The position numbers and the translations under genes are program-made. Under the pieces are notes generated by a model, which worked only from the letters and a program-made list of their open reading frames with translations, was not told the origin of the DNA and did no database searches. A stretch of DNA of 40,720 nucleotides from Candidatus Neomarinimicrobiota bacterium (GTDB lineage Bacteria > Fidelibacterota > SORT01): contig JACZTG010000018.1 of the NCBI GenBank assembly GCA_022573815.1, positions 1 to 40,720 on the forward strand. Reading direction: 5' to 3'. Position 1 is the stretch's first letter; every line of letters starts with the position of its first letter. Shown here in pieces: positions 16,587-36,893 of this stretch.

Positions 16587-18149
16587 CTATAACATTACGG
16601 TTTTTATAAAATCGTACCAGAATCCGATAAAAATCCTATTATCACTTTCATCAGCTCCTTCCACATTACCGAAATTATCAATAGATCTATATTCGTATTC
16701 AAATCTGAGTCTGAGCCTATTCGATACGCTTTTTTCCGCCTTTATCTCAAATGAAGTTATATTCTGAACGATTCCGGTTGGAAACGGTTCCGAGTAACCC
16801 CCACTAACAGAATATAGCGGAAGCCCCAAATTGTCTACATCGGTCCAGGGTGTGCTGAAGGGTACATTGATTCCGCCTTCTCCATCTCTGATAAAAGTTA
16901 GCGCTGTTGAAATCTTTAACCCTTTCATTATCCACGCGGAAGCTCCGAATTCCCAGCTGTCGAAGTCGTTTCCGAGAAAATATCCGATCGGTCTATTCCG
17001 ATGAATCAGAGTTTCTTCAATATTCGGTGTCGTATAAGTTCTGTTGGTAATCCTAACATATTCAGCCCACAGATCAACGCCATCAAAGCTAAACGGATTT
17101 GCCCTCCGCAATCCCAGTACTATTCCAATTTCGTCTGGTTCTAAATCGCCGATCTCCTTATTGTCAAGTTGGACATCGTCTATCAATAGAGCGGCTGACA
17201 GACGCCAGTTTCTCTTTGGATACCAGAGTAAGTCTATACTGCCGAGAGTATTCGCCTGGTTATTTTCATCGTTCAAATTTTCACCATGAAAAACCAGAGC
17301 GGGGTTACTGAATGCCGCCAATGGGCTTGCGTTAACACCGCCATAAATCAGCATTTCAGACACACCAATATTAAGCGAATTGCTTATATGAATATCAACT
17401 CTATGAGCCGATATAAATCTTCTTTTACCGGCTATTTTATCCAGCTCGGCAGCAAGGAAAGATAATTCTACAGGCCCAACTCTAAGTTCAGCATAAAGCT
17501 GGTCTAACGGTCTTGAATAGTCTGAAATTAAAAGCGTTCCCGCCCTTCCGACTCCCCATCTTTGAAAGTCTCTGCCGAAAAGTATGCTGAACCGCTCCGT
17601 TTCATAACGCAGGTATGCTTGCTCGGTAAACGCTGAGAGACCGCGCCAAGTACTCCCAATGTAGGTCGAATCATTCGCCAAATCTGAATCAAAATTCATT
17701 GTATTTATTACAGCGAAGTTATCACCGACTTGAAACCCGCCTTTAATTCGAAAGCTTCCGGTGTCGTCGGTTTCATTGCCTTCGTCTTCGAGACCTGCCT
17801 GAGTCAGCAATCCGATGAAGAATTCATCATTAGCGTTACCTTTGCGCAATTGGTTCATTTCCGAAGCAAATTCCGCATATAATTCATCTAAAAGCCACAC
17901 AGCCTTCGGCATATCATCCATCGCCCACCCGACTATTAACATATCCACAAGTTCGCTTGCCACTTCACCTCTTGAGAAGGGTTTTTTAGCCAAATTCAAT
18001 TCCAATAAAAATCCTCTCAGGCGCAATTCTTCCACATAATCATATACCCAGTGGTAGGTTGGAAGCGTTTCATTCACTCCTGCGTGGAGTTTAATATTCG
18101 GAATAATATAGGTTGTGACGAATAAAATAACGAAAACAAGTTTACGCAT
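16587..18149 (-). CDS. capsule assembly Wzi-family outer-membrane barrel
   Basis: 520 aa with an N-terminal signal peptide (about 1-23, cleavage near HAG). An amino-terminal helical part (30-105) precedes a long beta-barrel region. The segment FGRDFQRWGVGRAGTLLISD and the following PLDQLYAEL are typical of Wzi-like proteins, which anchor surface polysaccharide at the outer membrane. The last strand ends in YDFIKTVML. It overlaps gmhB by 8 bases and precedes ddl by 10, which fits a surface-polysaccharide role. The family call is from memory of the motif pattern; general barrel topology is more certain than the specific function. Confidence 0.78.
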   Translation of the reverse strand: MRKLVFVILFVTTYIIPNIKLHAGVNETLPTYHWVYDYVEELRLRGFLLELNLAKKPFSRGEVASELVDMLIVGWAMDDMPKAVWLLDELYAEFASEMNQLRKGNANDEFFIGLLTQAGLEDEGNETDDTGSFRIKGGFQVGDNFAVINTMNFDSDLANDSTYIGSTWRGLSAFTEQAYLRYETERFSILFGRDFQRWGVGRAGTLLISDYSRPLDQLYAELRVGPVELSFLAAELDKIAGKRRFISAHRVDIHISNSLNIGVSEMLIYGGVNASPLAAFSNPALVFHGENLNDENNQANTLGSIDLLWYPKRNWRLSAALLIDDVQLDNKEIGDLEPDEIGIVLGLRRANPFSFDGVDLWAEYVRITNRTYTTPNIEETLIHRNRPIGYFLGNDFDSWEFGASAWIMKGLKISTALTFIRDGEGGINVPFSTPWTDVDNLGLPLYSVSGGYSEPFPTGIVQNITSFEIKAEKSVSNRLRLRFEYEYRSIDNFGNVEGADESDNRIFIGFWYDFIKTVML

Positions 18150-27636: not shown

Positions 27637-27663
27637 TTGACTTCGCATTTCATCTCCTAATAT
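27637..27663 (+). promoter_or_regulatory. candidate promoter of the motor operon
   Basis: TTGACT (27637-27642) with TAATAT (27658-27663, spacing 15) or TATATT (27661-27666, spacing 18). It lies about 50 bases before the ATG at 27716 and is the only strong hexamer pair found ahead of the eight-gene operon. The upstream region 27413-27636 is AT-rich and otherwise featureless. Confidence 0.5.
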
Positions 27664-27715
27664 ATTGCAGATAGCAAGAAATTATTGCTATTGTTTTACC
27701 ACTTTGAGGATCAAT

Positions 27716-28702
27716 ATGAGTAACGACAAGTACACTGCCAAGCTGCGTGGAGCTTTTTTCACCACACTTATTCTAACCCTGTTTTTATCGGCCTGCGGCG
27801 CTCTTTCACCATTTGGAACAAGTGGCGACGATAAGGGCGATGGTCAGGATGTAACCCCTCTTTTCCGATCAGCCGTTAGCAGCAAGAACGAACAGCCAAC
27901 ACCTCAACAACAACAAACAGCTTCCGCACAGCAGAGTACCGCAACTCGATCTTCGTCAGGCGGTTTAGTGACTCAGCGTGTCGGCACAAGCATTTCTAAT
28001 CAGGATATATCAGAAGTACGTTTTGAAATTAAGAGATTGCAGGCTGAAATAGCCCATCTTAATTCAGAGATTACTAATCTGAATAATCGTTCTGAAATGT
28101 GGCGTGACCCGCAAAGCATTTTTAATAAGAAAATTGTGCTTACAAATGGAACTATCTTTTTTGGTAACGTTGTTTATCAGGATCAAAAATTTGTAAAAAT
28201 TGAGACCTTGATCGGCAGTTTGGTATTGCAACGAAATTCTATTAGTCGAATATTGGAAAATACATCTGGCTTTGATATACAAAGCCTTTACGAGCCTCAG
28301 CCAACGCTTCTTTCTAAACAACCCACTGCCGCGAGAGATAATCAAAGCAGATTTGCTCCTTCAGCTACAGAGCGGGGACTTGCAAATGTTGTGATTGAAA
28401 GTCCCATTAAGGAAAAGAAAGACAAGAGCGGAAATACGATTTTTAACGGCGTGTTGAAAAACACCGGTAACAAGCGCGCTGATTTTGTAAAAATAAATTT
28501 TATTATCAGAAAAGATTGGTCAGGTAACACCGAAACTTATACCACTTTTGTAAACGGCGCCCAATTTACTTTTGCCAGTGGAGTTAGTACGGATACCACT
28601 CTTCCGGCAGGGGCGACGGGGGCGTTTGAGATATATATACCACGTTCGATAGGCCCATTCATCGGGTACTCTTATTCCATAGATTGGGAAGAGTATGAAT
28701 AA
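27716..28702 (+). CDS. coiled-coil lipoprotein with FxLYD-like C-terminal domain
   Basis: 328 aa from the ATG at 27716 (GAGGA 5 bases before it, and the longer frame would start within the promoter). The signal peptide ends in LSAC, lipidated Cys27. A Gln/Ser/Thr-rich linker is followed by a coiled coil (DISEVRFEIKRLQAEIAHLN), then a compact beta segment with LTNGTIFFGNVVYQDQKFV reminiscent of Sm-like folds. The last ~100 residues (ANVVIESPIKEKKD, FNGVLKNTGNKRADFVKINF) look like an FxLYD domain. It is probably periplasmic and membrane-anchored. It is first in the operon with MotA/MotB and FliF/FliG-like genes, so it may be a structural part of that machine. Confidence 0.8.
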   Translation: MSNDKYTAKLRGAFFTTLILTLFLSACGALSPFGTSGDDKGDGQDVTPLFRSAVSSKNEQPTPQQQQTASAQQSTATRSSSGGLVTQRVGTSISNQDISEVRFEIKRLQAEIAHLNSEITNLNNRSEMWRDPQSIFNKKIVLTNGTIFFGNVVYQDQKFVKIETLIGSLVLQRNSISRILENTSGFDIQSLYEPQPTLLSKQPTAARDNQSRFAPSATERGLANVVIESPIKEKKDKSGNTIFNGVLKNTGNKRADFVKINFIIRKDWSGNTETYTTFVNGAQFTFASGVSTDTTLPAGATGAFEIYIPRSIGPFIGYSYSIDWEEYE

Positions 28703-29408
28703 ATTTTCTCTCACGGCATCAATAATAGCGTCACTGTTCATCGGTTGTGGAGGCTCTGCTTCAAGCGGTAGCCTTTCAACCGAGATCGGAAACGATGCCG
28801 TAACGCATAATATTGAGCTTATGGACTTAAGGTCGTCAGTTATTATCCTTCAATCTGAAATTATAGACCTGAAAGAAAGCCTGAAGCTCGCCACAGATAT
28901 AAATGACCGCCTGAACACACAGATTGAAGAGAAAAATGCGAGATTAAAAGCTATTGAAGGATATCCGAGTTCAAGCAAAGCGTCTGTCATAAAGAAAAAC
29001 GATAGTCGAGCAGTTGTTATGCAATTTGATGAAACCGACACTGTTGAAAAAATGTACAAAACCGCTATATCATCTTATTTTGACGGCGAATATAAAAATG
29101 CAATCAAATACTTCGAAAAACTAATTTCTGTGGATGATTCACACGATTTGTCTGATAATGCCCAGTATTGGATAGGCGAATCATATTTTGCACTCGGGCA
29201 TTACGAAGATGCCATGGGCACTTTCGAGATTGTCTTAACATATCCACAGAGCAACAAAAATGATTATGCGCAATTTAAAATCGGACTTTGCCTATTGAAA
29301 TTGAATAAACGCAATCAGGCAAATGCAGCTTTTCAGTCTTTTCTGGACAGTTACCCGGAAAGTGAACTTGTGAGCAGAGTAGAGACGCTCAAAATCAGGA
29401 TACAATAG
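28695..29408 (+). CDS. CpoB/YbgF-like TPR lipoprotein, copy 1
   Basis: 237 aa. The lipobox FIGC puts the lipidated Cys at 18. A coiled coil (about 40-90, LQSEIIDLKESLKLATD) leads to three tetratricopeptide repeats (about 118-237) with the CpoB-type phrase LSDNAQYWIGESYFALGHY. In E. coli CpoB the same layout links peptidoglycan synthesis and Tol-Pal. Here the neighbours are motor genes and no tol genes are visible, so the name describes architecture, not function. It overlaps the previous gene by 8 bases, and the next gene starts directly at its stop codon. Confidence 0.85.
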   Translation: MNKFSLTASIIASLFIGCGGSASSGSLSTEIGNDAVTHNIELMDLRSSVIILQSEIIDLKESLKLATDINDRLNTQIEEKNARLKAIEGYPSSSKASVIKKNDSRAVVMQFDETDTVEKMYKTAISSYFDGEYKNAIKYFEKLISVDDSHDLSDNAQYWIGESYFALGHYEDAMGTFEIVLTYPQSNKNDYAQFKIGLCLLKLNKRNQANAAFQSFLDSYPESELVSRVETLKIRIQ

Positions 29409-30434
29409 ATGCGGCTTCTTCAATTAGCGCTCGTAGTAACCATTTTAATTATTGCCGGCTGTGGCGGTTCACGAACCAACAGCAATTCGAACGAAAGCAG
29501 ACCTTACGCATTCGTTAAACCTGCTATTGATGAGACTTCCATAGATACAGACAAGGGCGGAAATGAAGGCTCCATCACTGAGGAAGAGGAATTCAAACCA
29601 CACCCGCTGATACCTCTCGAAAGCCCGGTAAACAAAAATCTCCGAAAAGATGATCCCTTGTTAAATGGCGGCTTTTTGTATGATCTCGGACTTGAAATCG
29701 AACCGATAGGGGGAAGTACGAATAATATTGTTGTTGATCCAATGCTCGAAAGCATTCGGCAAGACCTTATGATTAAGTGGGGAATGGACGAACGCGGAAC
29801 TTCCACCCAAAAGATTATGAGCTCGGCCGTTCCGGACATACATCTGCGAATTTCGAATCTTGAAAACAGTATGAAGGGCGATCTTGCAGCGCTAAGAAGC
29901 GAGAATTTGCTGCTGCTCAGTAAATTGCAGGAACTGGAAAAAAGGATTGTTTCCAAACCAAAAGTTAAGAAAAAAACTTCGAAAAAAGCAGTATCGCGAA
30001 AAATAATAAAACCGATAGTTAAGACAGCTTCAAAAACAATCAAACCGAAGATCAAGAAATCGTACAAGGTTAGATATGATAACGCACTTTCTGACTATCG
30101 GAAAAGAAGGTTTGCTTCCGCTATTAAGAAATTCAACGCACTTTTAGCTGAGAATAACAATAACAATTTATCCGACAATGCCCAATATTGGATAGGAGAA
30201 TGTTATTATCATATGAAGCTTTATTCCAAGGCCGCAACTGGATTTGGAAATGTACTTAACTACAAGAATTCTAATAAAATAGACTCTGCCATTCTTATGA
30301 GGGGAAAGGCTTATAAACATTTAGGTCGAAAATCCGATGCTATCGCTCAGTTTCGGACGCTTGTTACTAACTATCCCAGAAGTTCTTATACCAAGCGAGC
30401 AAGGGAACTTATTTCAGACCTGGAAAGAATCTAA
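29409..30434 (+). CDS. CpoB/YbgF-like TPR lipoprotein, copy 2
   Basis: 341 aa. Lipobox IAGC with Cys18. A long disordered acidic linker, a short coiled coil (MKGDLAALRSENLLLLSKL), a Lys-rich hinge (KPKVKKKTSKKA) and three TPRs follow. The phrase LSDNAQYWIGECYYHMKLY matches the previous protein almost word for word, at DNA level too, so the two genes are an ancient tandem duplicate that diverged in the linker. The basic hinge could contact peptidoglycan or another acidic envelope component. It starts at the base after the previous stop codon. Confidence 0.85.
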   Translation: MRLLQLALVVTILIIAGCGGSRTNSNSNESRPYAFVKPAIDETSIDTDKGGNEGSITEEEEFKPHPLIPLESPVNKNLRKDDPLLNGGFLYDLGLEIEPIGGSTNNIVVDPMLESIRQDLMIKWGMDERGTSTQKIMSSAVPDIHLRISNLENSMKGDLAALRSENLLLLSKLQELEKRIVSKPKVKKKTSKKAVSRKIIKPIVKTASKTIKPKIKKSYKVRYDNALSDYRKRRFASAIKKFNALLAENNNNNLSDNAQYWIGECYYHMKLYSKAATGFGNVLNYKNSNKIDSAILMRGKAYKHLGRKSDAIAQFRTLVTNYPRSSYTKRARELISDLERI

Positions 30435-30449
30435 CCCGATTATCTGCTT

Positions 30450-31820
30450 ATGAAAATAACTGTTATCAAAATATTTTTAGCAACTTCGTTCTCACTTTTA
30501 CTAACAGTGCAGAATATCAGTGGTCAGGCTCGAGTTGGTTTTTCAACAATAGGCGATATGATCAATATTCCTACTACAAGCCATATTATAGGTCCTGATT
30601 TTTTACGGTTCGGATTTGGTGTGGAGTTGAACAATTTCTCTCCATTTCAATCAAGTCAGGGAATATATTTTGATTTTGAACCCTCTTCAAAATATCGCTT
30701 TGGTATTACCGCCTTAAAGGGGTTTTTGCCGGAAAGTACACTTGTCGCTCCGAATCCGGTTGACCCCGCGCCGGAGTTTGGGTTTTCTTTTCAAAGAAAT
30801 ATTTTTACGTATGAAAATATGTCAGTAGCGGCAGGGGTAACGAATATTATTTTTACAGAATCTACCGACTCTTTACAGCGACAGGTTCTCTCTTCTGAGA
30901 TAGGCGCATTTTCTTTTTATGGTATTGTGAGCAGAGAACAGGAATTTGAACTCTATCGCTTAAGATGGTCTATCGGTATAGGAACAGATCGATTTGCAGC
31001 CGATGTGTCAACAGGATCGTCATCAGCTATTGGAATTTTTGCCGGATTTGACCTCAGAACCACCCTTCTTCCTCAAATAGGCGGATTACGTATTCTCGGT
31101 GAATACGACGGTAAGGGAATGAACATTGGAACAAGACTGCCGCTTACGCGCGACTATACCGTAAACTTTGCAATTACGCAGATAGAAAAAATATTGAAAT
31201 TCGGGAAAACAACCGGCAAAGACTTTCCCGGAATTTCTATGGGACTATCCATAAATTTTCCAAGAAAAATTCCCGAAGAAATTATAGAACGGCCAATAGG
31301 CTTACCGTATGCCGAAAGAACCACACTTCCGCCGGGCGTTACCGGCGCACCCGGACTTCTGGTTCCATCAGGCTATATGTCTGATGAAGAAATTCAGGAT
31401 CTTCGCGATTCGCTAAACTTTGCCGCTCAACAGATTGAGACACTTGACGATCTCGCAATGATGTTGAGACAGCGTGTTTCTGTTCTTCAAGATTCAGTCC
31501 AAATTGTTAAGACAGAGCGGTTTGCGCTTGAGCAGAATATAAATGCCGCATTAAAGCATCTTTCGCGTTCTTTGAGATATTTTTACGCCACGCAATATAG
31601 GTCGGCGCTTGAGGAGGTTGAAACAGCAATCGAGTTCAATCCGAATCTCGCATTAGCTTATGCTCGCAGGGGATCAATATTTTATAAATTAGGTGATACG
31701 GAACGAGCAGTAATGAATTGGAATGTAGCGCTTCAGCTTGACCCTGAATATGACGACATCAGGAACATTCTGAGAGCAATGGGCGAAAATCGTTTAAGGG
31801 TAACTTCTTTCAGGAGGTAA
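30450..31820 (+). CDS. outer-membrane barrel with coiled coil and C-terminal TPR
   Basis: 456 aa. Signal peptide (about 1-25, cleavage after SGQA). Residues 27-285 have an amphipathic, aromatic strand pattern like an outer-membrane barrel. A Pro-rich stretch and a coiled coil (IQDLRDSLNFAAQQIETLDD, about 312-365) come next. The C-terminal part (about 366-445) has two TPRs (EVETAIEFNPNLALAYARRG; KLGDTERAVMNWNVALQLDP). Barrel plus TPR would link the outer membrane to periplasmic partners. It is 15 bases from the second TPR lipoprotein and 12 before motA, so the outer-membrane and stator genes are cotranscribed. Confidence 0.78.
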   Translation: MKITVIKIFLATSFSLLLTVQNISGQARVGFSTIGDMINIPTTSHIIGPDFLRFGFGVELNNFSPFQSSQGIYFDFEPSSKYRFGITALKGFLPESTLVAPNPVDPAPEFGFSFQRNIFTYENMSVAAGVTNIIFTESTDSLQRQVLSSEIGAFSFYGIVSREQEFELYRLRWSIGIGTDRFAADVSTGSSSAIGIFAGFDLRTTLLPQIGGLRILGEYDGKGMNIGTRLPLTRDYTVNFAITQIEKILKFGKTTGKDFPGISMGLSINFPRKIPEEIIERPIGLPYAERTTLPPGVTGAPGLLVPSGYMSDEEIQDLRDSLNFAAQQIETLDDLAMMLRQRVSVLQDSVQIVKTERFALEQNINAALKHLSRSLRYFYATQYRSALEEVETAIEFNPNLALAYARRGSIFYKLGDTERAVMNWNVALQLDPEYDDIRNILRAMGENRLRVTSFRR

Positions 31821-31832
31821 CAGGATAAAAGT

Positions 31833-32627
31833 ATGGATATTGCATCATTAGTCGGAATGCTTGCCGGAATCGGCATTATTTTTCACGCTCTTTCCACAGG
31901 CGCAGCACCACTTATATCGTTCTACAATCTACCAAGCATAGAAATTGTTCTCGGTGGAACCATAGCTGCTACACTACTCTCTTTCCCAATTAAGGAAGTT
32001 TTAAGAGTCGCATCTGTAGCATTGATAATATTTAAAAAGGGCGGGATGGAGACTTTAGGACCATTTGTTAATGAAACGGTCGATCTGTCACGAGTAGCCA
32101 GGCTCGGCGTTACCGAGCTTGAGAAAGAAAAAGAATCTATTAGCAATCCTTTTTTGAGAGACGGGGTTCAGATGATTATTGATGGATATACCGAACTTGA
32201 GATCAGGGAAATTATGGAATCGCGTATCGAAAACAGAGAGATACGTGAAAAATGGGAAGAAAACGTTTTAAGAACGATGGCAAAATTTGCTCCCGGATTC
32301 GGTATGATGGGAACCCTCATAGGTCTGATAGGTATGCTTGTTTCAATGGGCGCGTCTTCAGACCCCTCAAAAACTATCGGGCCGAATATGGCAGTAGCGC
32401 TTGTAACAACTTTTTATGGTGTTCTTTTGGCAAACCTGCTGCTTGTTCCAATGGCTGAAAAGTTTAAATCACGCATCGAACAACAGACTGTGATGCAGAA
32501 TATGCTGATAGAAGGAGTTTCAATGTTGTATCAGAAAAAACACCCCCTTGTTGTGCGCGAGAAACTCAACTCCTTCCTTCCCCCCAGCGAATGGGAAAGC
32601 GATAGTGATGGTGGTGGAGAAAAATAA
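31833..32627 (+). CDS. motA: MotA-type stator protein
   Basis: 264 aa inner-membrane proton/ion channel subunit. Four membrane segments are visible (about 5-22, 35-52, 150-172, 184-206). The cytoplasmic loop between the second and third is rich in charge, as in MotA where it contacts FliG. The functional prolines correspond to Pro154 in KFAPGFGMMGTLIGLIGML and Pro206 in LLLVPMAEK. This is the true MotA/PomA branch, not ExbB/TolQ, which is shorter with three segments. Ribosome-binding site AGGATAAAAGT precedes the ATG. It is followed after 21 bases by motB. Confidence 0.93.
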   Translation: MDIASLVGMLAGIGIIFHALSTGAAPLISFYNLPSIEIVLGGTIAATLLSFPIKEVLRVASVALIIFKKGGMETLGPFVNETVDLSRVARLGVTELEKEKESISNPFLRDGVQMIIDGYTELEIREIMESRIENREIREKWEENVLRTMAKFAPGFGMMGTLIGLIGMLVSMGASSDPSKTIGPNMAVALVTTFYGVLLANLLLVPMAEKFKSRIEQQTVMQNMLIEGVSMLYQKKHPLVVREKLNSFLPPSEWESDSDGGGEK

Positions 32628-32648
32628 TAACTGTGAGATCATTTAAGA

Positions 32649-33359
32649 ATGCCTGAAAACGATAATATAAATCAAGAGCTCATTCTTCGGAAGAAAAAGA
32701 AAAAGATACCTCCTGCTGACCAAACGGAACAGTGGCTCCTCACTTATGGAGATATGGTCACATTGATGATGACGTTTTTCATACTGCTCTTTTCAATGTC
32801 TACGATAGATCCCGTTAAAATAAGAGCCTTTGCCGATTCTCTGTCAGAAACGATCGGACATTCGAAAATTGAAAGAGATGAGATTGATCTAGCTGCTATT
32901 ATGAAAAAAGTTGTAGATATTGTAGTCGAGCAGAATATGCAGGATAACGTTTCTGTTCGCTCTGATGCCAGAGGTGTTACTATAGATTTCAAGGGTGACG
33001 TAGCCTTCAAAACAGGCTCGGCTGATCTTTCGGCTGCTGCCAAATCGTTATTGGACAAGCTTGCTCCGGAAATAAACTCTGCGCTGCATGCTACGCCGCC
33101 ATTTCCAATCGCCATTGAAGGTCACACGGACAATGTACCGCTCAGAAAGGGTGGAGCATTCCCATCTAATTGGGAGCTTTCAACGGCCAGAGCAAGCGCT
33201 ACAGTAAGATATCTTCTTGAGCAGGGTGGAGTTGATGCGCCCCCGGGGAAACTTTCAGCAATCGGTTATGGCGATACATGGCCCAAAGATACGAACAGCA
33301 CCCCTGAGGGAAGGGCATCAAACAGAAGAATTGAAATACTATTTTTAACTATCGGTTAA
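32649..33359 (+). CDS. motB: MotB-type stator protein with OmpA domain
   Basis: 236 aa. A basic N-terminus (RKKKKKI) precedes the single membrane helix, WLLTYGDMVTLMMTFFILLF, with the essential proton-carrying Asp35. The plug-like segment follows. The C-terminal OmpA-like domain has the peptidoglycan-binding signature (IEGHTDNVPL, SNWELSTARA, SNRRIEILF). All features of an active, wall-anchored stator are present. It is shorter than E. coli MotB but typical for many phyla. It is cotranscribed with motA (21 bases) and the FliF-like gene (20 bases). Confidence 0.93.
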   Translation: MPENDNINQELILRKKKKKIPPADQTEQWLLTYGDMVTLMMTFFILLFSMSTIDPVKIRAFADSLSETIGHSKIERDEIDLAAIMKKVVDIVVEQNMQDNVSVRSDARGVTIDFKGDVAFKTGSADLSAAAKSLLDKLAPEINSALHATPPFPIAIEGHTDNVPLRKGGAFPSNWELSTARASATVRYLLEQGGVDAPPGKLSAIGYGDTWPKDTNSTPEGRASNRRIEILFLTIG

Positions 33360-33379
33360 CAGTCCGGAGATATTTTAAA

Positions 33380-34549
33380 ATGAAGAAAAATCAATTATTA
33401 AAAACATTCGCAATATGGTTTACAGTCAGTGTACTGCCACTATCCATAGCGCTTTCACAAAATTCGCAATCGCAACTGGCTCAGAAGATAATGCTCGAAA
33501 ATCATTTGCGAACTCGGGCTGAATCTGCATTAAAACATGCTTTAGGCAAGGTAAGATTTTTCGTTAACGTAAATGCTGAAATTAATATTATTCCGGCGCA
33601 ACGCTCCCAACAGATATGGGAACCGGGTAAAGAAGCGAAAGATACGAATATATCCAGGTCGGGCTTGTCGCCCGAAAATCTGCCGGCAGGAGTATTGCCA
33701 AGCGATCTTCTCCTTCCACCGACTCAATCATTTTCTCCGGTATTACCGGGATTCCCGGAGATCCAATCTGCGGAAAGCGAAACTCCTGAAGTTGAATCTC
33801 CGGCAAGGCCGCTTGAAACAATTCCCGAGGAACCGTCTAACACAATTGCGGACATGCCTAAAGACGAGGCGGGTTCTACTCTTGTAAGCTATTCTATCGA
33901 AAGAACTGTAATGGCGATTCCTGAAATTGTTAAGCTTGATGTTACTGTGATGTTTGAAGACGGTGTAGATAAAAAAGTTTTGGATGCCGTCAGACCGATA
34001 GTTGAAGTCGCAACCGGATTGGACTATCAAAGAGGGGATAAATTGAATATTGTCACCACCTCTTTCCTTCAGGGAGAAGCTATCGCCCAGTTGACAGCTG
34101 AGGGTGCATTATCAGATACCGATTTCGCGACTATTGAAGAAAGCCTCGCAGCAAGAATGCTGGAGTTGGAGGCAAAACAGAATGATGCCGAAAATCGTAT
34201 TCTTTACTATCTTGGAGGCGGCTTACTTTTCTTGCTTCTTCTGGCATTTTTAATTATTCGTTACATACGGCGCAATAATACTGAATTAGCGGATACTGGA
34301 TACAATTTCGAAAATGTCGTCTCGGGAACTCCGGCAGAAATTAGTTCTGCGCAGGCGGATGCTAAATTAGCCAGAGAATCCGATTCTAATCGAATGCGCG
34401 CGACAGCATTGGAAAGAGAGATGCATAAAGCAGAGCTGAAAAACACACGACAAGCTATTATTACACTTAGTATAGGAAAGCCTGATACGGCTACAAAAAT
34501 ATTGAATGATTGGATAAGCTCAACCAGTGAGAGCACAGAGGAGATATAA
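33380..34549 (+). CDS. FliF-like MS-ring protein lacking the N-terminal half
   Basis: 389 aa. Signal peptide (about 1-27), then SALKHALGKVRFFVNVNAEI (49-68), which parallels the FliF segment before its ring-forming region. A long Pro/Glu/Ser linker (90-165) follows. Residues 168-229 (VSYSIERTVMAIPEIVKLDV, then GLDYQRGDKLNIVTTSF) match the FliF C-terminal periplasmic domain. A membrane helix (276-295) and a cytoplasmic tail (296-389) follow, whose end, IGKPDTATKILNDWISS, resembles the FliG-binding tail of FliF. FliF is normally about 550 aa with an N-terminal membrane helix and more ring domains; these are missing. The stop codon overlaps the start of the FliG-like gene by one base. Confidence 0.85.
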   Translation: MKKNQLLKTFAIWFTVSVLPLSIALSQNSQSQLAQKIMLENHLRTRAESALKHALGKVRFFVNVNAEINIIPAQRSQQIWEPGKEAKDTNISRSGLSPENLPAGVLPSDLLLPPTQSFSPVLPGFPEIQSAESETPEVESPARPLETIPEEPSNTIADMPKDEAGSTLVSYSIERTVMAIPEIVKLDVTVMFEDGVDKKVLDAVRPIVEVATGLDYQRGDKLNIVTTSFLQGEAIAQLTAEGALSDTDFATIEESLAARMLELEAKQNDAENRILYYLGGGLLFLLLLAFLIIRYIRRNNTELADTGYNFENVVSGTPAEISSAQADAKLARESDSNRMRATALEREMHKAELKNTRQAIITLSIGKPDTATKILNDWISSTSESTEEI

Positions 34550-35481
34550 TGGCTGAAGAGACTATACTTTCCGGTCTTGAAAAAGCAGCAATACTGTTCA
34601 GGGTTCTGGGACCGAATTTAGCCCGACCGTTATTTAAATCATTAAGCGAGACCAATATAATGAAAATTCGCTCAAAAATGAACGAGCTCTCTGATGTTAC
34701 CTTTGATATGAAAAAGCAAGTTATGGAAGAGTTTTACTTTAATTTCATGTCTGAAAAGATGGTTAGTGGAAAGGAGAGTCTATCAAACCCATTTGCGTTC
34801 CTGAATGATCTTGTAGATGAGCAGGTCCTACTGTTGCTTAAAGAGGAAACATCTCGAATTTCAGCGATCGCGCTTGCTCAGCTGCCAACCGAAAGAGTGG
34901 CAAGAATTGTAACACGTTTTGAGCCGGAATTGCAGAGTAAAGTAATGATTGAAATGGGTCATTTAGTGGATATTCCATTAGAGGGTGTTGAAAACATCGC
35001 AAGCGACCTCGCCGAAAAAGCTCTCGGGTTGCCGAAATTTCACAACCTTTCCACAGGTGGCAGCGAATCACTTTCTGATCTTCTTGATCATCTTGATGTT
35101 TCAAATGAGAAACAGATTCTTGATATGCTTTCTAAAGAAGACCCGCAGCTCGCAAAGGAAGTCAGAAAATCTCATTTTACATTTGAAGATTTAATGCTTA
35201 TCCCCGACAATCTAATGCGCGAACTGTTGCGAAGTATAGAAACAACGGATATAGCGATGGCTCTCAAGGGACAGACACAAGAATTTAGGGACAAACTATA
35301 TAACAACCTTCCGGAACGCGCTCAGATTATCCTTGAGGATGAAATCAGGCTGGTTGAGGGACCCCAGCCACGCAGGAAAGTTCAAAATGCGCAGAAGTCT
35401 ATTGTGGACCAGGTTAAAGAATTACAAAAAGAAGGTAAGATCAACATGGCAGATATTTTAGAATCCGACATGATTGAATAA
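34549..35481 (+). CDS. fliG: FliG-like rotor protein
   Basis: 310 aa, cytoplasmic. Three parts can be traced: N-domain (GLEKAAILFRVLG, residues 9-21), middle domain (ISAIALAQLPTERVARIV onwards) and C-domain. In the last, HFTFEDLMLIPDNLMRELLR, then DIAMALKG and LPERAQIILEDEI keep the charged helix that interacts with MotA in FliG. The middle-domain EHPQ motif, which binds FliM, is replaced by EETSR. It ends NMADILESDMIE. It is the last gene of the operon, adjoining a FliF-like gene, followed by a strong terminator. Confidence 0.88.
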   Translation: MAEETILSGLEKAAILFRVLGPNLARPLFKSLSETNIMKIRSKMNELSDVTFDMKKQVMEEFYFNFMSEKMVSGKESLSNPFAFLNDLVDEQVLLLLKEETSRISAIALAQLPTERVARIVTRFEPELQSKVMIEMGHLVDIPLEGVENIASDLAEKALGLPKFHNLSTGGSESLSDLLDHLDVSNEKQILDMLSKEDPQLAKEVRKSHFTFEDLMLIPDNLMRELLRSIETTDIAMALKGQTQEFRDKLYNNLPERAQIILEDEIRLVEGPQPRRKVQNAQKSIVDQVKELQKEGKINMADILESDMIE

Positions 35482-35522
35482 TAAGTTTTAAGATTTTCTC
35501 TAAGGATGGGATCCTCAAAGGA

Positions 35523-35557
35523 AAAGCCCTCCCGCGTGTACTTGGCGGGGGGGCTTT
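35523..35557. terminator. bidirectional terminator
   Basis: 13-bp stem AAAGCCCTCCCGC / GCGGGGGGGCTTT (one G-T pair) with a 9-base loop. It lies between the convergent fliG and esterase genes. A run of T's follows on the minus strand (TTTTCC) and three on the plus strand. Confidence 0.85.
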
Positions 35558-35579: not shown

Positions 35580-36893
35580 CTAATTACCGATAGCGCTGTT
35601 AAACGCTGCAAATGCCTCATCAATGCGCGTATAAACTCCGTCAGAATGAGCGCCGGTATAAGTAGCAGACACAAAAGTTATGCCCAATGAAGTTAACAGC
35701 TCGACGAATTTATTATGTTGAGCGATTATACCGAATCCGACAATGTCATCGGTCGGATCAAAGTCGTCATTTATACCAGTATCGAAGTAGATATTCAGAG
35801 CACTGAAGTCGGCAACCTGCTGGGCGCCAAATGCAGGATATAATAGAGAACCGCCCTGTGCCAACATCGTATAGACATCCTGTAGCTGCCATAAACCAAA
35901 TATATCTGGCTTGAGAGTTGCCACACCGTCGGCATCAAACACGACTGGAAGATCAGCCCCGAGCCAGATATCATCTGTCGGATCAGATGGGGTACCCAAA
36001 TCGCTGAGAAGGGATATGGGATACTGAAAATTATCCGTTGGGTCGGGATCAAGACTGGCGGCCAACAATAAATTGTCGAAGGTAAGAAAACTTCCGTAGT
36101 GCGGAGAGAACGATGATGCCATCCCAAACAGTGTCAGCGTTATCGGATTCGCCGCCCTGTCAGCTGCCGCAGCGGCTAAATCAAGCACAGGCGAATTGGG
36201 CGCACTCGCCATTTTTTCAGCGGCTATCCTTTCAAGCAACCTGCTGTCGGGAGCTTCAAAAAGCTGAGCCAATGCGAGCGGGCCCGAATGAGACGCTACA
36301 GATACGAACATCTCTGGATGTAATAGAGCCAATTTCATTGCTCCGTAACCGCCCATGGAATTCCCCATTATACCGCGTTTTGTCACATCGATATTATAGG
36401 TCGCCTCAGCAGTCGGCATTAAAACTGCCGTTATCAATGCTTCGTACGCGCCAAAACCAAATGCGGGATTAAATGCCGGATTTCTTGTAAGATCGTGATC
36501 GAATGAATTGGTATAGAATCCACCACCAAGAGGATTTGAGGCGCTTGGCATTACTACTATAGTGGGTTCGAGAACTCCCTCATCAATCATTCTGTCAAGA
36601 ATCTGCGCTAAATCAAAACCGGTAGGCCATGATTCGTTATCGCCACCAACACCGTGCAGCTGATAGACTACCGGATAACCTGCCGCTCTTGTGGCATCAT
36701 AATTCGGAGGCAAATATACCTTTGCCACCCTGTCTTCCCCGATAACAGCCGTACTTGCAATATCAAGATTTACAATTGTTCCGGCATTCGGTAAGGTCGT
36801 TTCAAAGGGCGTAGTGGGTTCATCTTCGCCACATCCGGTAATTGTTATCCCTATAATGAACAGCAAACTAAATTGAATATGTTTCATTTTCAA
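35580..36893 (-). CDS. lipoprotein esterase (esterase D/feruloyl-type alpha/beta hydrolase)
   Basis: 437 aa. Lipobox ITGC, Cys21. An alpha/beta-hydrolase fold is seen from VVYQLHGVGG, the nucleophile GNSMGGYGAM (Ser about 179), and C-terminal candidates for acid (around FDTGINDD) and His in GAHSDGVY. This matches the putative esterase family (feruloyl esterase, S-formylglutathione hydrolase, antigen 85). An Asp/Pro-rich loop insertion is present around residue 290. It acts outside the cytoplasm. It follows the FadL-type porin by 13 bases. Confidence 0.87.
   Translation of the reverse strand: MKMKHIQFSLLFIIGITITGCGEDEPTTPFETTLPNAGTIVNLDIASTAVIGEDRVAKVYLPPNYDATRAAGYPVVYQLHGVGGDNESWPTGFDLAQILDRMIDEGVLEPTIVVMPSASNPLGGGFYTNSFDHDLTRNPAFNPAFGFGAYEALITAVLMPTAEATYNIDVTKRGIMGNSMGGYGAMKLALLHPEMFVSVASHSGPLALAQLFEAPDSRLLERIAAEKMASAPNSPVLDLAAAAADRAANPITLTLFGMASSFSPHYGSFLTFDNLLLAASLDPDPTDNFQYPISLLSDLGTPSDPTDDIWLGADLPVVFDADGVATLKPDIFGLWQLQDVYTMLAQGGSLLYPAFGAQQVADFSALNIYFDTGINDDFDPTDDIVGFGIIAQHNKFVELLTSLGITFVSATYTGAHSDGVYTRIDEAFAAFNSAIGN

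What the first reader, a model, noticed from the sequence alone, without database searches (positions are those of the whole stretch)
27637..35557. Candidate non-flagellar rotary motor operon: MotA/MotB, FliF-like, FliG-like with outer-membrane and TPR lipoprotein genes
Seen: eight consecutive plus-strand genes with gaps of 0-21 bases or short overlaps, one promoter and one terminator. MotA prolines, MotB Asp35 and OmpA domain, the FliF C-terminal domain and FliG torque helix are present. The first four genes encode three lipoproteins and an outer-membrane barrel/TPR protein. No FliM, FliN, export, rod, hook or filament gene lies in the window. Known: MotAB-like stators drive flagella and myxobacterial gliding (AglRQS with Glt proteins); Zorya uses ZorAB for defence. 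Inference: this couples a stator and a FliF/FliG rotor to the periplasm and outer membrane, for gliding, surface transport or envelope work.
Basis: partly seen in the sequence, partly recalled or inferred. Interest (0 to 1): 0.92.

Follow-up and report, generated by a model that had tools for sequence, protein, structure and literature searches.

The report
Filament-less rotary motor operon
A conserved set of eight neighbouring genes in a poorly studied phylum of mostly marine bacteria appears to build a flagellar-type spinning engine that has no export gate, switch or propeller and is wired to outer-membrane proteins, which suggests that cells use the flagellar motor for something other than turning a flagellum.

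Summary
Window 27716-35481 carries eight tightly packed plus-strand genes: a lipoprotein (g1), two TPR lipoproteins, an outer-membrane barrel/TPR protein, MotA, MotB, a shortened FliF (RBM3/collar, TM, FliG-binding tail; no RBM1-2) and a FliG. The genome (phylum Neomarinimicrobiota) ALSO holds a complete ordinary flagellar cluster with its own FliF, FliG, FliM, FliN, MotA and MotB, so this is a separate second motor. All 40 relative loci fetched (17 families) keep the order; TPR lipoproteins number 0-2, flanks vary. Of 98 genomes at least 90% complete, 78 carry the operon, 21 have flagella (FlhA), and 59 have the operon without flagella; FliM was absent from 55 of 56 tested operon+/FlhA- genomes. 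FliG2 and MotA2 form clades apart from the flagellar copies. Among about 290 genomes of other phyla, g1 gave only weak, partial matches and FliG2 one possible relative. I read it as a non-flagellar stator-rotor machine transmitting torque to the outer membrane. Its use (surface movement, transport or envelope work) is unproven; the phylum's only named isolate is reported non-motile. I found no description in the open-access library searched.

The parts
27716..28702 (+). g1: lipoprotein; coiled coil, small Sm-like beta-barrel, C-terminal beta-sandwich; no Pfam family; best marker of the system
   Evidence: conserved in 75 of 98 near-complete phylum genomes
28695..29408 (+). g2: YbgF/CpoB-like TPR lipoprotein with coiled coil
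   Evidence: TIGR02795 5.9e-20, below cut-off
29409..30434 (+). g3: second YbgF/CpoB-like TPR lipoprotein with coiled coil (0-2 such genes in relatives)
30450..31820 (+). g4: signal peptide, outer-membrane beta-barrel of about 12 strands, long periplasmic helix, C-terminal TPR
   Evidence: pLDDT 77; Foldseek FapF 5o65 E 2.5e-7
31833..32627 (+). motA2: flagellar-type (FIT) stator A subunit
   Evidence: Aquifex MotA 8ucs 2.6e-44; own clade, SH-aLRT 100
32649..33359 (+). motB2: stator B subunit, channel Asp35, plug, OmpA peptidoglycan-binding domain
   Evidence: Asp in 40/40
33380..34549 (+). fliF2: shortened MS-ring protein: signal peptide or TM, RBM3/beta-collar, TM, cytoplasmic tail ending in a FliF-like FliG-binding motif; no RBM1/RBM2
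   Evidence: (Salmonella FliF residues 241-440, E 6.7e-9)
34549..35481 (+). fliG2: 310-aa FliG with N, M and C domains, short N-M linker, FliM-binding EHPQR-type motif lost, K264-equivalent invariant
   Evidence: (own clade, SH-aLRT 95)
35523..35557 (.). GC-rich hairpin after the operon, possible terminator shared with the convergent gene
   Evidence: no T run; weak

Best explanation
The operon encodes an ion-driven, non-flagellar rotary machine. A dedicated flagellar-type MotA2/MotB2 stator, anchored to peptidoglycan, turns a ring of FliG2 held on the cytoplasmic tail of FliF2. FliF2 is a cut-down MS-ring protein that keeps the ring-building RBM3/collar, one TM and the FliG-binding tail, but lacks the part that houses the export gate. 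There is no FliM/FliN, hence no chemotactic switch, and no export gate, rod or filament. Torque leaves through the periplasmic part of FliF2 (extended in most relatives by a coiled coil) to the coiled-coil/TPR lipoproteins g1-g3 and the outer-membrane barrel/TPR protein g4. Most likely use: movement of surface or outer-membrane components, as in contact-dependent (gliding-like) motility or surface transport. Shown here: gene content, domain architecture, conservation, independence from flagella, separate ancestry from the genome's own flagellar copies. Inferred: ring assembly, rotation, coupling to g1-g4, biological use. My component estimates: rotor-stator machine 0.8; torque passed to the outer membrane 0.6; surface movement as its use 0.4.
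For: Operon order conserved in all 40 fetched loci of 17 families while flanks change. Operon in 78 of 98 near-complete genomes against 21 with FlhA; 59 have the operon without FlhA; no association (Fisher p 0.23). FliM absent from 55 of 56 tested operon+/FlhA- genomes (the exception, G001, has flagellar fragments). Rotor chemistry kept: K264-equivalent 46/46, R281-equivalent R/K 46/46, MotB Asp 40/40, MotA Arg/Glu loop residues and prolines retained in nearly all sequences inspected, FliF C-terminal motif ...VGxPDxAxxIxxxWL like flagellar FliF tails. FliM-binding motif EHPQ(R/T) kept in flagellar FliGs but lost in FliG2, and the N-M linker shortened, as expected if FliM is gone. FliG2 and MotA2 each form one side of a supported branch apart from the phylum's flagellar copies, so this is not a recent duplicate or a decaying relic. 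g4 models as an outer-membrane barrel with coiled coil and TPR.
Against: No experiment shows rotation or assembly. The D288/D289 torque-helix charges are present in the window but replaced or deleted in more than half of relatives, so stator-rotor contacts may differ. FliF2 is only distantly similar to FliF (E about 1e-8). The single named isolate of the phylum, Fidelibacter multiformis, is described as non-motile (PMC11652737); whether it carries the operon was not established, and gliding was not discussed there. No adhesin is encoded in the operon. Some lineages lost the operon (streamlined genomes of about 1 Mb and several of about 2 Mb), so it is dispensable.
Confidence: 0.62

Rival explanations
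1. Envelope-maintenance energiser (works like Tol-Pal): the stator uses ion flow to pull or rotate a periplasmic complex that keeps outer membrane and peptidoglycan in register, for example at division; the FliF2/FliG2 ring is a scaffold or clutch rather than a motility rotor.
For: g2 and g3 resemble YbgF/CpoB (TIGR02795 about 1e-20); MotB2 binds peptidoglycan; g4 sits in the outer membrane; TolB_N gave no match in 16 of 20 phylum genomes and only weak ones in 4, so a canonical Tol-Pal system seems missing and its role could be open.
Against: TolB is also unrecognised in genomes without this operon, so the operon does not track a Tol vacancy. A Tol-like pump needs no FliG/FliF ring, yet FliG2 keeps its K264-equivalent in 46/46 and FliF2 keeps the FliG-binding tail. 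No Pal or TolB gene in the operon.
Confidence: 0.22
2. The motor energises or moves type IX-secreted surface proteins (T9SS-linked gliding or secretion) in place of the missing GldLM motor.
For: SprA, the T9SS translocon, is in 43 of 44 phylum genomes while GldM is in 0 of 44, with a positive control at 3.4e-108 in another genome. In G034 a different FliG/MotA/MotB locus sits next to a 1120-aa protein with a T9SS sorting domain and a FadL-like TPR barrel.
Against: All 16 sampled genomes without a detected FliG2 also have SprA and no GldM, so T9SS does not depend on this motor. No T9SS gene lies in the operon.
Confidence: 0.12
3. Flagellar relic or accessory second motor for the flagellum (alternative stator/rotor parts).
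For: All motor parts are homologous to flagellar ones; this genome also has a full flagellum.
Against: 59 of 78 operon carriers lack FlhA and 55 of 56 tested lack FliM; the set is intact, ordered and conserved phylum-wide; FliG2 and MotA2 are clades separate from the flagellar copies; the FliM-binding motif is gone.
Confidence: 0.04
4. Anti-phage defence system related to Zorya.
For: MotB2 matches ZorB profiles (6.7e-21), as any MotB would; Zorya uses MotAB-like proteins (my general knowledge).
Against: No ZorA match and no other defence family besides generic MotB and TPR matches; stable phylum-wide gene order and varied housekeeping flanks rather than a defence island; FliG, FliF and an outer-membrane barrel are not Zorya parts.
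Confidence: 0.01

Closest known systems
Bacterial flagellar motor (MotAB stator, FliF MS ring, FliG)
   Same: Flagellar-type MotA and MotB, FliG with N, M and C domains and conserved torque-helix Lys, FliF RBM3/collar plus TM plus FliG-binding tail.
   Different: No FliM/FliN, FlhAB, FliPQR, FliI, rod, hook or filament genes in the unit; FliF2 lacks RBM1/2; FliM-binding motif lost; fused in gene order with outer-membrane proteins; present mostly in genomes without flagella.
AglRQS-Glt gliding machine of Myxococcus
   Same: MotA/B-related stator working with a set of envelope proteins including TPR proteins (works-like comparison).
   Different: AglRS fall in the generic (GIT), not flagellar, stator clade (PMC12505986); no FliG or FliF known there; similarity of g2/g3 to GltC is only weak TPR similarity (9.9e-5).
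GldLM / type IX secretion gliding motor of Bacteroidota
   Same: Inner-membrane ion-driven motor linked to outer-membrane machinery; SprA present in the phylum.
   Different: GldM not detected in 44 genomes; different stator family; the operon holds no T9SS gene.
Tol-Pal system
   Same: Ion-driven stator with YbgF/CpoB-like lipoproteins and peptidoglycan binding.
   Different: Flagellar MotAB instead of TolQR, no TolA/TolB/Pal, plus a FliF/FliG rotor.
Zorya defence system
   Same: MotAB-like pair.
   Different: No ZorA-type tail and no Zorya effector; has FliF/FliG and outer-membrane parts.

Membership tests
Bacterial flagellum | Type III export gate (FlhA) in carriers of the operon | tested here: not met
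   59 of 78 operon carriers (98 genomes at least 90% complete) have no FlhA over cut-off
Bacterial flagellum | FliM/FliN switch | tested here: not met
   FliM absent from 55 of 56 tested operon+/FlhA- genomes, found in all five flagellate controls; EHPQR-type motif lost in FliG2
Bacterial flagellum | FliF with RBM1-RBM2-RBM3 | tested here: not met
   Only the RBM3/collar part matches
Bacterial flagellum | FliG with torque helix and flagellar-type MotAB | tested here: met
Bacterial flagellum | Rod, hook and filament genes with the unit | tested here: not met
   None among the eight genes or in the conserved neighbourhood; a separate flagellar cluster is on contig C5 of this genome
AglRQS-Glt gliding machine | GIT-type AglR/Q/S stator with Glt proteins | tested here: not met
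   MotA2 matches flagellar MotA/PomA/MotP (1e-54) and TolQ only at 2.9e-5; GltC only weak TPR match
T9SS/GldLM motor | GldM homologue | tested here: not met
   0 of 44 genomes; positive control G299 3.4e-108
Tol-Pal | TolB and Pal with TolQRA | tested here: not met
   None in the operon; TolB_N no match in 16 of 20 genomes and weak in 4. Pal and TolA elsewhere in the genome not tested
Zorya | ZorA and ZorC/D/E components | tested here: not met
   PADLOC: only MotB-type ZorB and a weak TPR match
Rotary stator-rotor machine (mechanistic class) | FliG2 ring turned by MotA2B2 | not testable with these tools
   Needs complex prediction, cryo-ET or reconstitution

The most novel reading that the evidence does not exclude
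A previously undescribed class of trans-envelope rotary machine, characteristic of one bacterial phylum: flagellar-type stator and a FliF/FliG rotor without export, switch or filament, delivering torque directly to the outer membrane to move surface components or the cell. Flagellar rotor parts would thus have an independent function in flagella-free bacteria.
Probability: 0.5. Interest if true: 0.93.

Novelty: new variant of a known kind. Interest (0 to 1): 0.85.

Why it matters
[quoted passage not shown] Here is a concrete, phylum-wide, eight-gene candidate for such a function, mostly in genomes in which the export and switch genes tested (FlhA, FliM) were not found. If it rotates, it shows what half a flagellar motor can do, offers a minimal MotAB-FliG-FliF engine without a switch for mechanistic work, and predicts an unseen envelope machine in a widespread group of marine bacteria.

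Tried and rejected
Genome-contig scan with FliG2 reached only three close relatives; a scan by profile was no longer available. Zorya tested and rejected. T9SS dependence tested and not supported. Association with flagella tested: none. Upstream neighbours tested as possible ninth component: baeRF family 10 in five families, panBCD or a PPDK-like gene in others, so they are lineage-specific synteny. Structure search of g1 gave no significant PDB match. Rfam found nothing in the window. Multi-FliG genomes of other phyla (G496, G373, G516) turned out to hold flagellar-type FliG. Attempt to tie single-contig genome G018 (2,788,509 bp) to the isolate Fidelibacter multiformis IA91 (2.79 Mb, 45.6% GC, PMC11652737) stayed open: sampled GC 47.5%, mraY present.

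Full report
WHAT IS THERE. The eight genes are real and arranged as described. Gene 1 starts at ATG 27716, not at the earlier TTG: AGGA precedes it and that Met is nearly invariant in relatives. Intergenic gaps are 0-21 bases, with overlaps of 8 and 1. Domain searches give TPR lipoproteins (genes 2 and 3, YbgF/CpoB-like), TPR (gene 4), MotA, MotB with plug and OmpA domain, the YscJ_FliF_C domain and all three FliG domains. A promoter-like site exists, but the region holds no more such sites than shuffled sequence. A strong hairpin follows the last gene, without a T run.

THE GENOME HAS A NORMAL FLAGELLUM TOO. FliG_C finds two places in the 2.39-Mb genome: this one and contig C5. C5:76-101 kb reads as a full flagellar cluster. 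FlhA, FlhB, FliP, FliN, FliM, MotA, MotB, FliI, FliG and FliF were taken from it and used as reference profiles that recovered the same set in flagellate relatives, and FlhA and FliM were confirmed by family models. Named close relatives of the FliG2 locus are Candidatus Marinimicrobia / Neomarinimicrobiota, a phylum now also called Fidelibacterota (PMC11652737).

CONSERVATION. I fetched 40 loci with this FliG (FliG2) from 17 GTDB families. In every one the order is g1 - (TPR lipoproteins) - g4 - motA - motB - fliF - fliG, except where a contig ends. Five more loci (L113, L117-L119, L122) agree and show that the TPR lipoproteins number 0-2. g1, which has no Pfam family, is among the best conserved. 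Flanking genes are lineage-specific housekeeping genes: baeRF, panBCD, a PPDK-like protein (the last two named from their sequences).

DISTRIBUTION. All 245 held genomes of the phylum were searched for FliG2 and FlhA (42 genomes over the cut-off). Among 98 genomes at least 90% complete: operon and FlhA 19, operon alone 59, FlhA alone 2, neither 18. 'Operon' here means FliG2 or g1 found. The two traits are independent (Fisher p 0.23). FliM was sought in 56 complete operon+/FlhA- genomes and found in one (G001, a truncated copy beside a flagellar-type FliG), and in all five flagellate controls. The operon is missing from the streamlined genomes of about 1 Mb (family f6) and from some lineages of about 2 Mb. 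Outside the phylum, the g1 profile met only weak matches (best 2.9e-7) in about 290 genomes. FliG2 had one relative that aligned over nearly the whole length (G283, E 7.8e-38; a 651-aa protein next to a TPR gene at a contig end).

ANATOMY. FliF2 aligns with Salmonella FliF 241-440, that is RBM3 and the collar (domain naming from general knowledge). It keeps a TM and a tail (window: IITLSIGKPDTATKILNDWIS) like flagellar FliF tails (INYAAEKPEEVAAIIKAWLAS), and lacks RBM1/2. Most relatives insert a charged, coiled-coil-like stretch between RBM3 and the TM; the window's family has the shortest form. FliG2 keeps the Lys equivalent to E. coli K264 in 46/46 and Arg/Lys at R281 in 46/46; D288/D289 equivalents are kept in the window but in only 18 of 46 (E. 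coli numbering from memory; the MotA R90/E98 contacts with FliG D289/R281 are stated in PMC7564593). The EHPQ(R/T) motif of the FliG middle domain, present in all or nearly all 24 flagellar FliGs, is lost except for its Glu, and the N-M linker is shortened. MotA2 is of the flagellar class; its best solved relative is Aquifex MotA (source organism from memory). The survey that separates flagellar (FIT) from generic (GIT) stators puts AglRS in the latter (PMC12505986). g4 models as an outer-membrane barrel with a 68-residue helix and TPR; the nearest solved barrel is FapF. g1 models as a coiled coil, a small Hfq-like barrel and a beta-sandwich (no significant match).

ANCESTRY. In a tree of 50 FliGs all 21 FliG2 sequences lie on one side of a branch (SH-aLRT 95), away from the phylum's flagellar FliGs. 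In a MotA tree all 20 MotA2 do so (100). The trees are quick searches, unrooted, with some long branches; they argue against a recent duplication from the resident flagellum but do not date the split.

HOW IT MOST LIKELY WORKS (inference). MotA2B2 anchored to peptidoglycan turns a FliG2 ring fixed to a FliF2 ring; the periplasmic part of FliF2 engages the coiled-coil and TPR lipoproteins and g4, so that torque reaches the outer membrane. Without FliM/FliN it probably cannot switch by CheY. The output is best guessed as movement of surface components or of cells on surfaces. The main rival is an envelope-maintenance energiser like Tol-Pal. T9SS energising is disfavoured because SprA is nearly universal and independent of the operon, and defence is disfavoured. 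A caution for motility: the only named isolate of the phylum is reported non-motile, though its operon status is unknown.

NOVELTY. Full-text searches for non-flagellar FliG, FliG homologues or paralogues, FliG with gliding, and Marinimicrobia motility returned no description of such an operon. A 2026 gliding review has no FliG-based machine. Subscription papers and preprints were mostly not searchable. The engine is a variant of the flagellar motor; as a whole system it meets the membership tests of none of the known machines considered.

Noticed in passing
44 genomes of the phylum; e.g. G000:C2:29803-33915 (L144): SprA (T9SS translocon) is found in 43 of 44 genomes but GldM in none (model validated in G299), so this phylum may run T9SS without a recognisable GldLM motor.
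   Followed up: partly
L115:2308-11202 (G034): A different FliG-MotA-MotB locus: REC-Hpt, REC, FliG (M and C domains, 466 aa), MotA, MotB, a 1120-aa FG-GAP protein with T9SS sorting domain, and a FadL-like barrel with TPR, beside Wzz, LytR and polysaccharide-export genes; the genome lacks the main operon.
   Followed up: partly
L114:7580-11149 (G025): A third, divergent FliG-like protein (509 aa) followed by two TPR proteins, in a genome that also has the operon and a flagellar FliG.
   Followed up: partly
L108:9823-12764 (G283, another phylum): 651-aa FliG2-like protein next to a TPR protein and a small outer-membrane-type protein; the contig ends upstream, so stator genes could not be checked.
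   Followed up: partly
L116:2584-4573 (G000 contig C6) and similar places in most genomes: The C-terminal domain of g1 recurs in other proteins of the same genomes; in G000 it sits in a gene directly after a HEAT-repeat protein.
   Followed up: partly
L117 and L118 (G149); G207 C10 and C13: Some genomes carry two copies: G149 has two FliG2 operons, and G207 has two g1 genes, one beside a TPR lipoprotein gene at a contig end.
   Followed up: partly
20 phylum genomes: TolB_N gives no match in 16 and weak matches in 4, so canonical Tol-Pal may be missing in the phylum.
   Followed up: no
window 16587-18149 (-) and 35580-36893 (-): Ordinary neighbours: a Wzi-type capsule assembly protein, an esterase and other housekeeping genes; none linked to the motor.
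   Followed up: no
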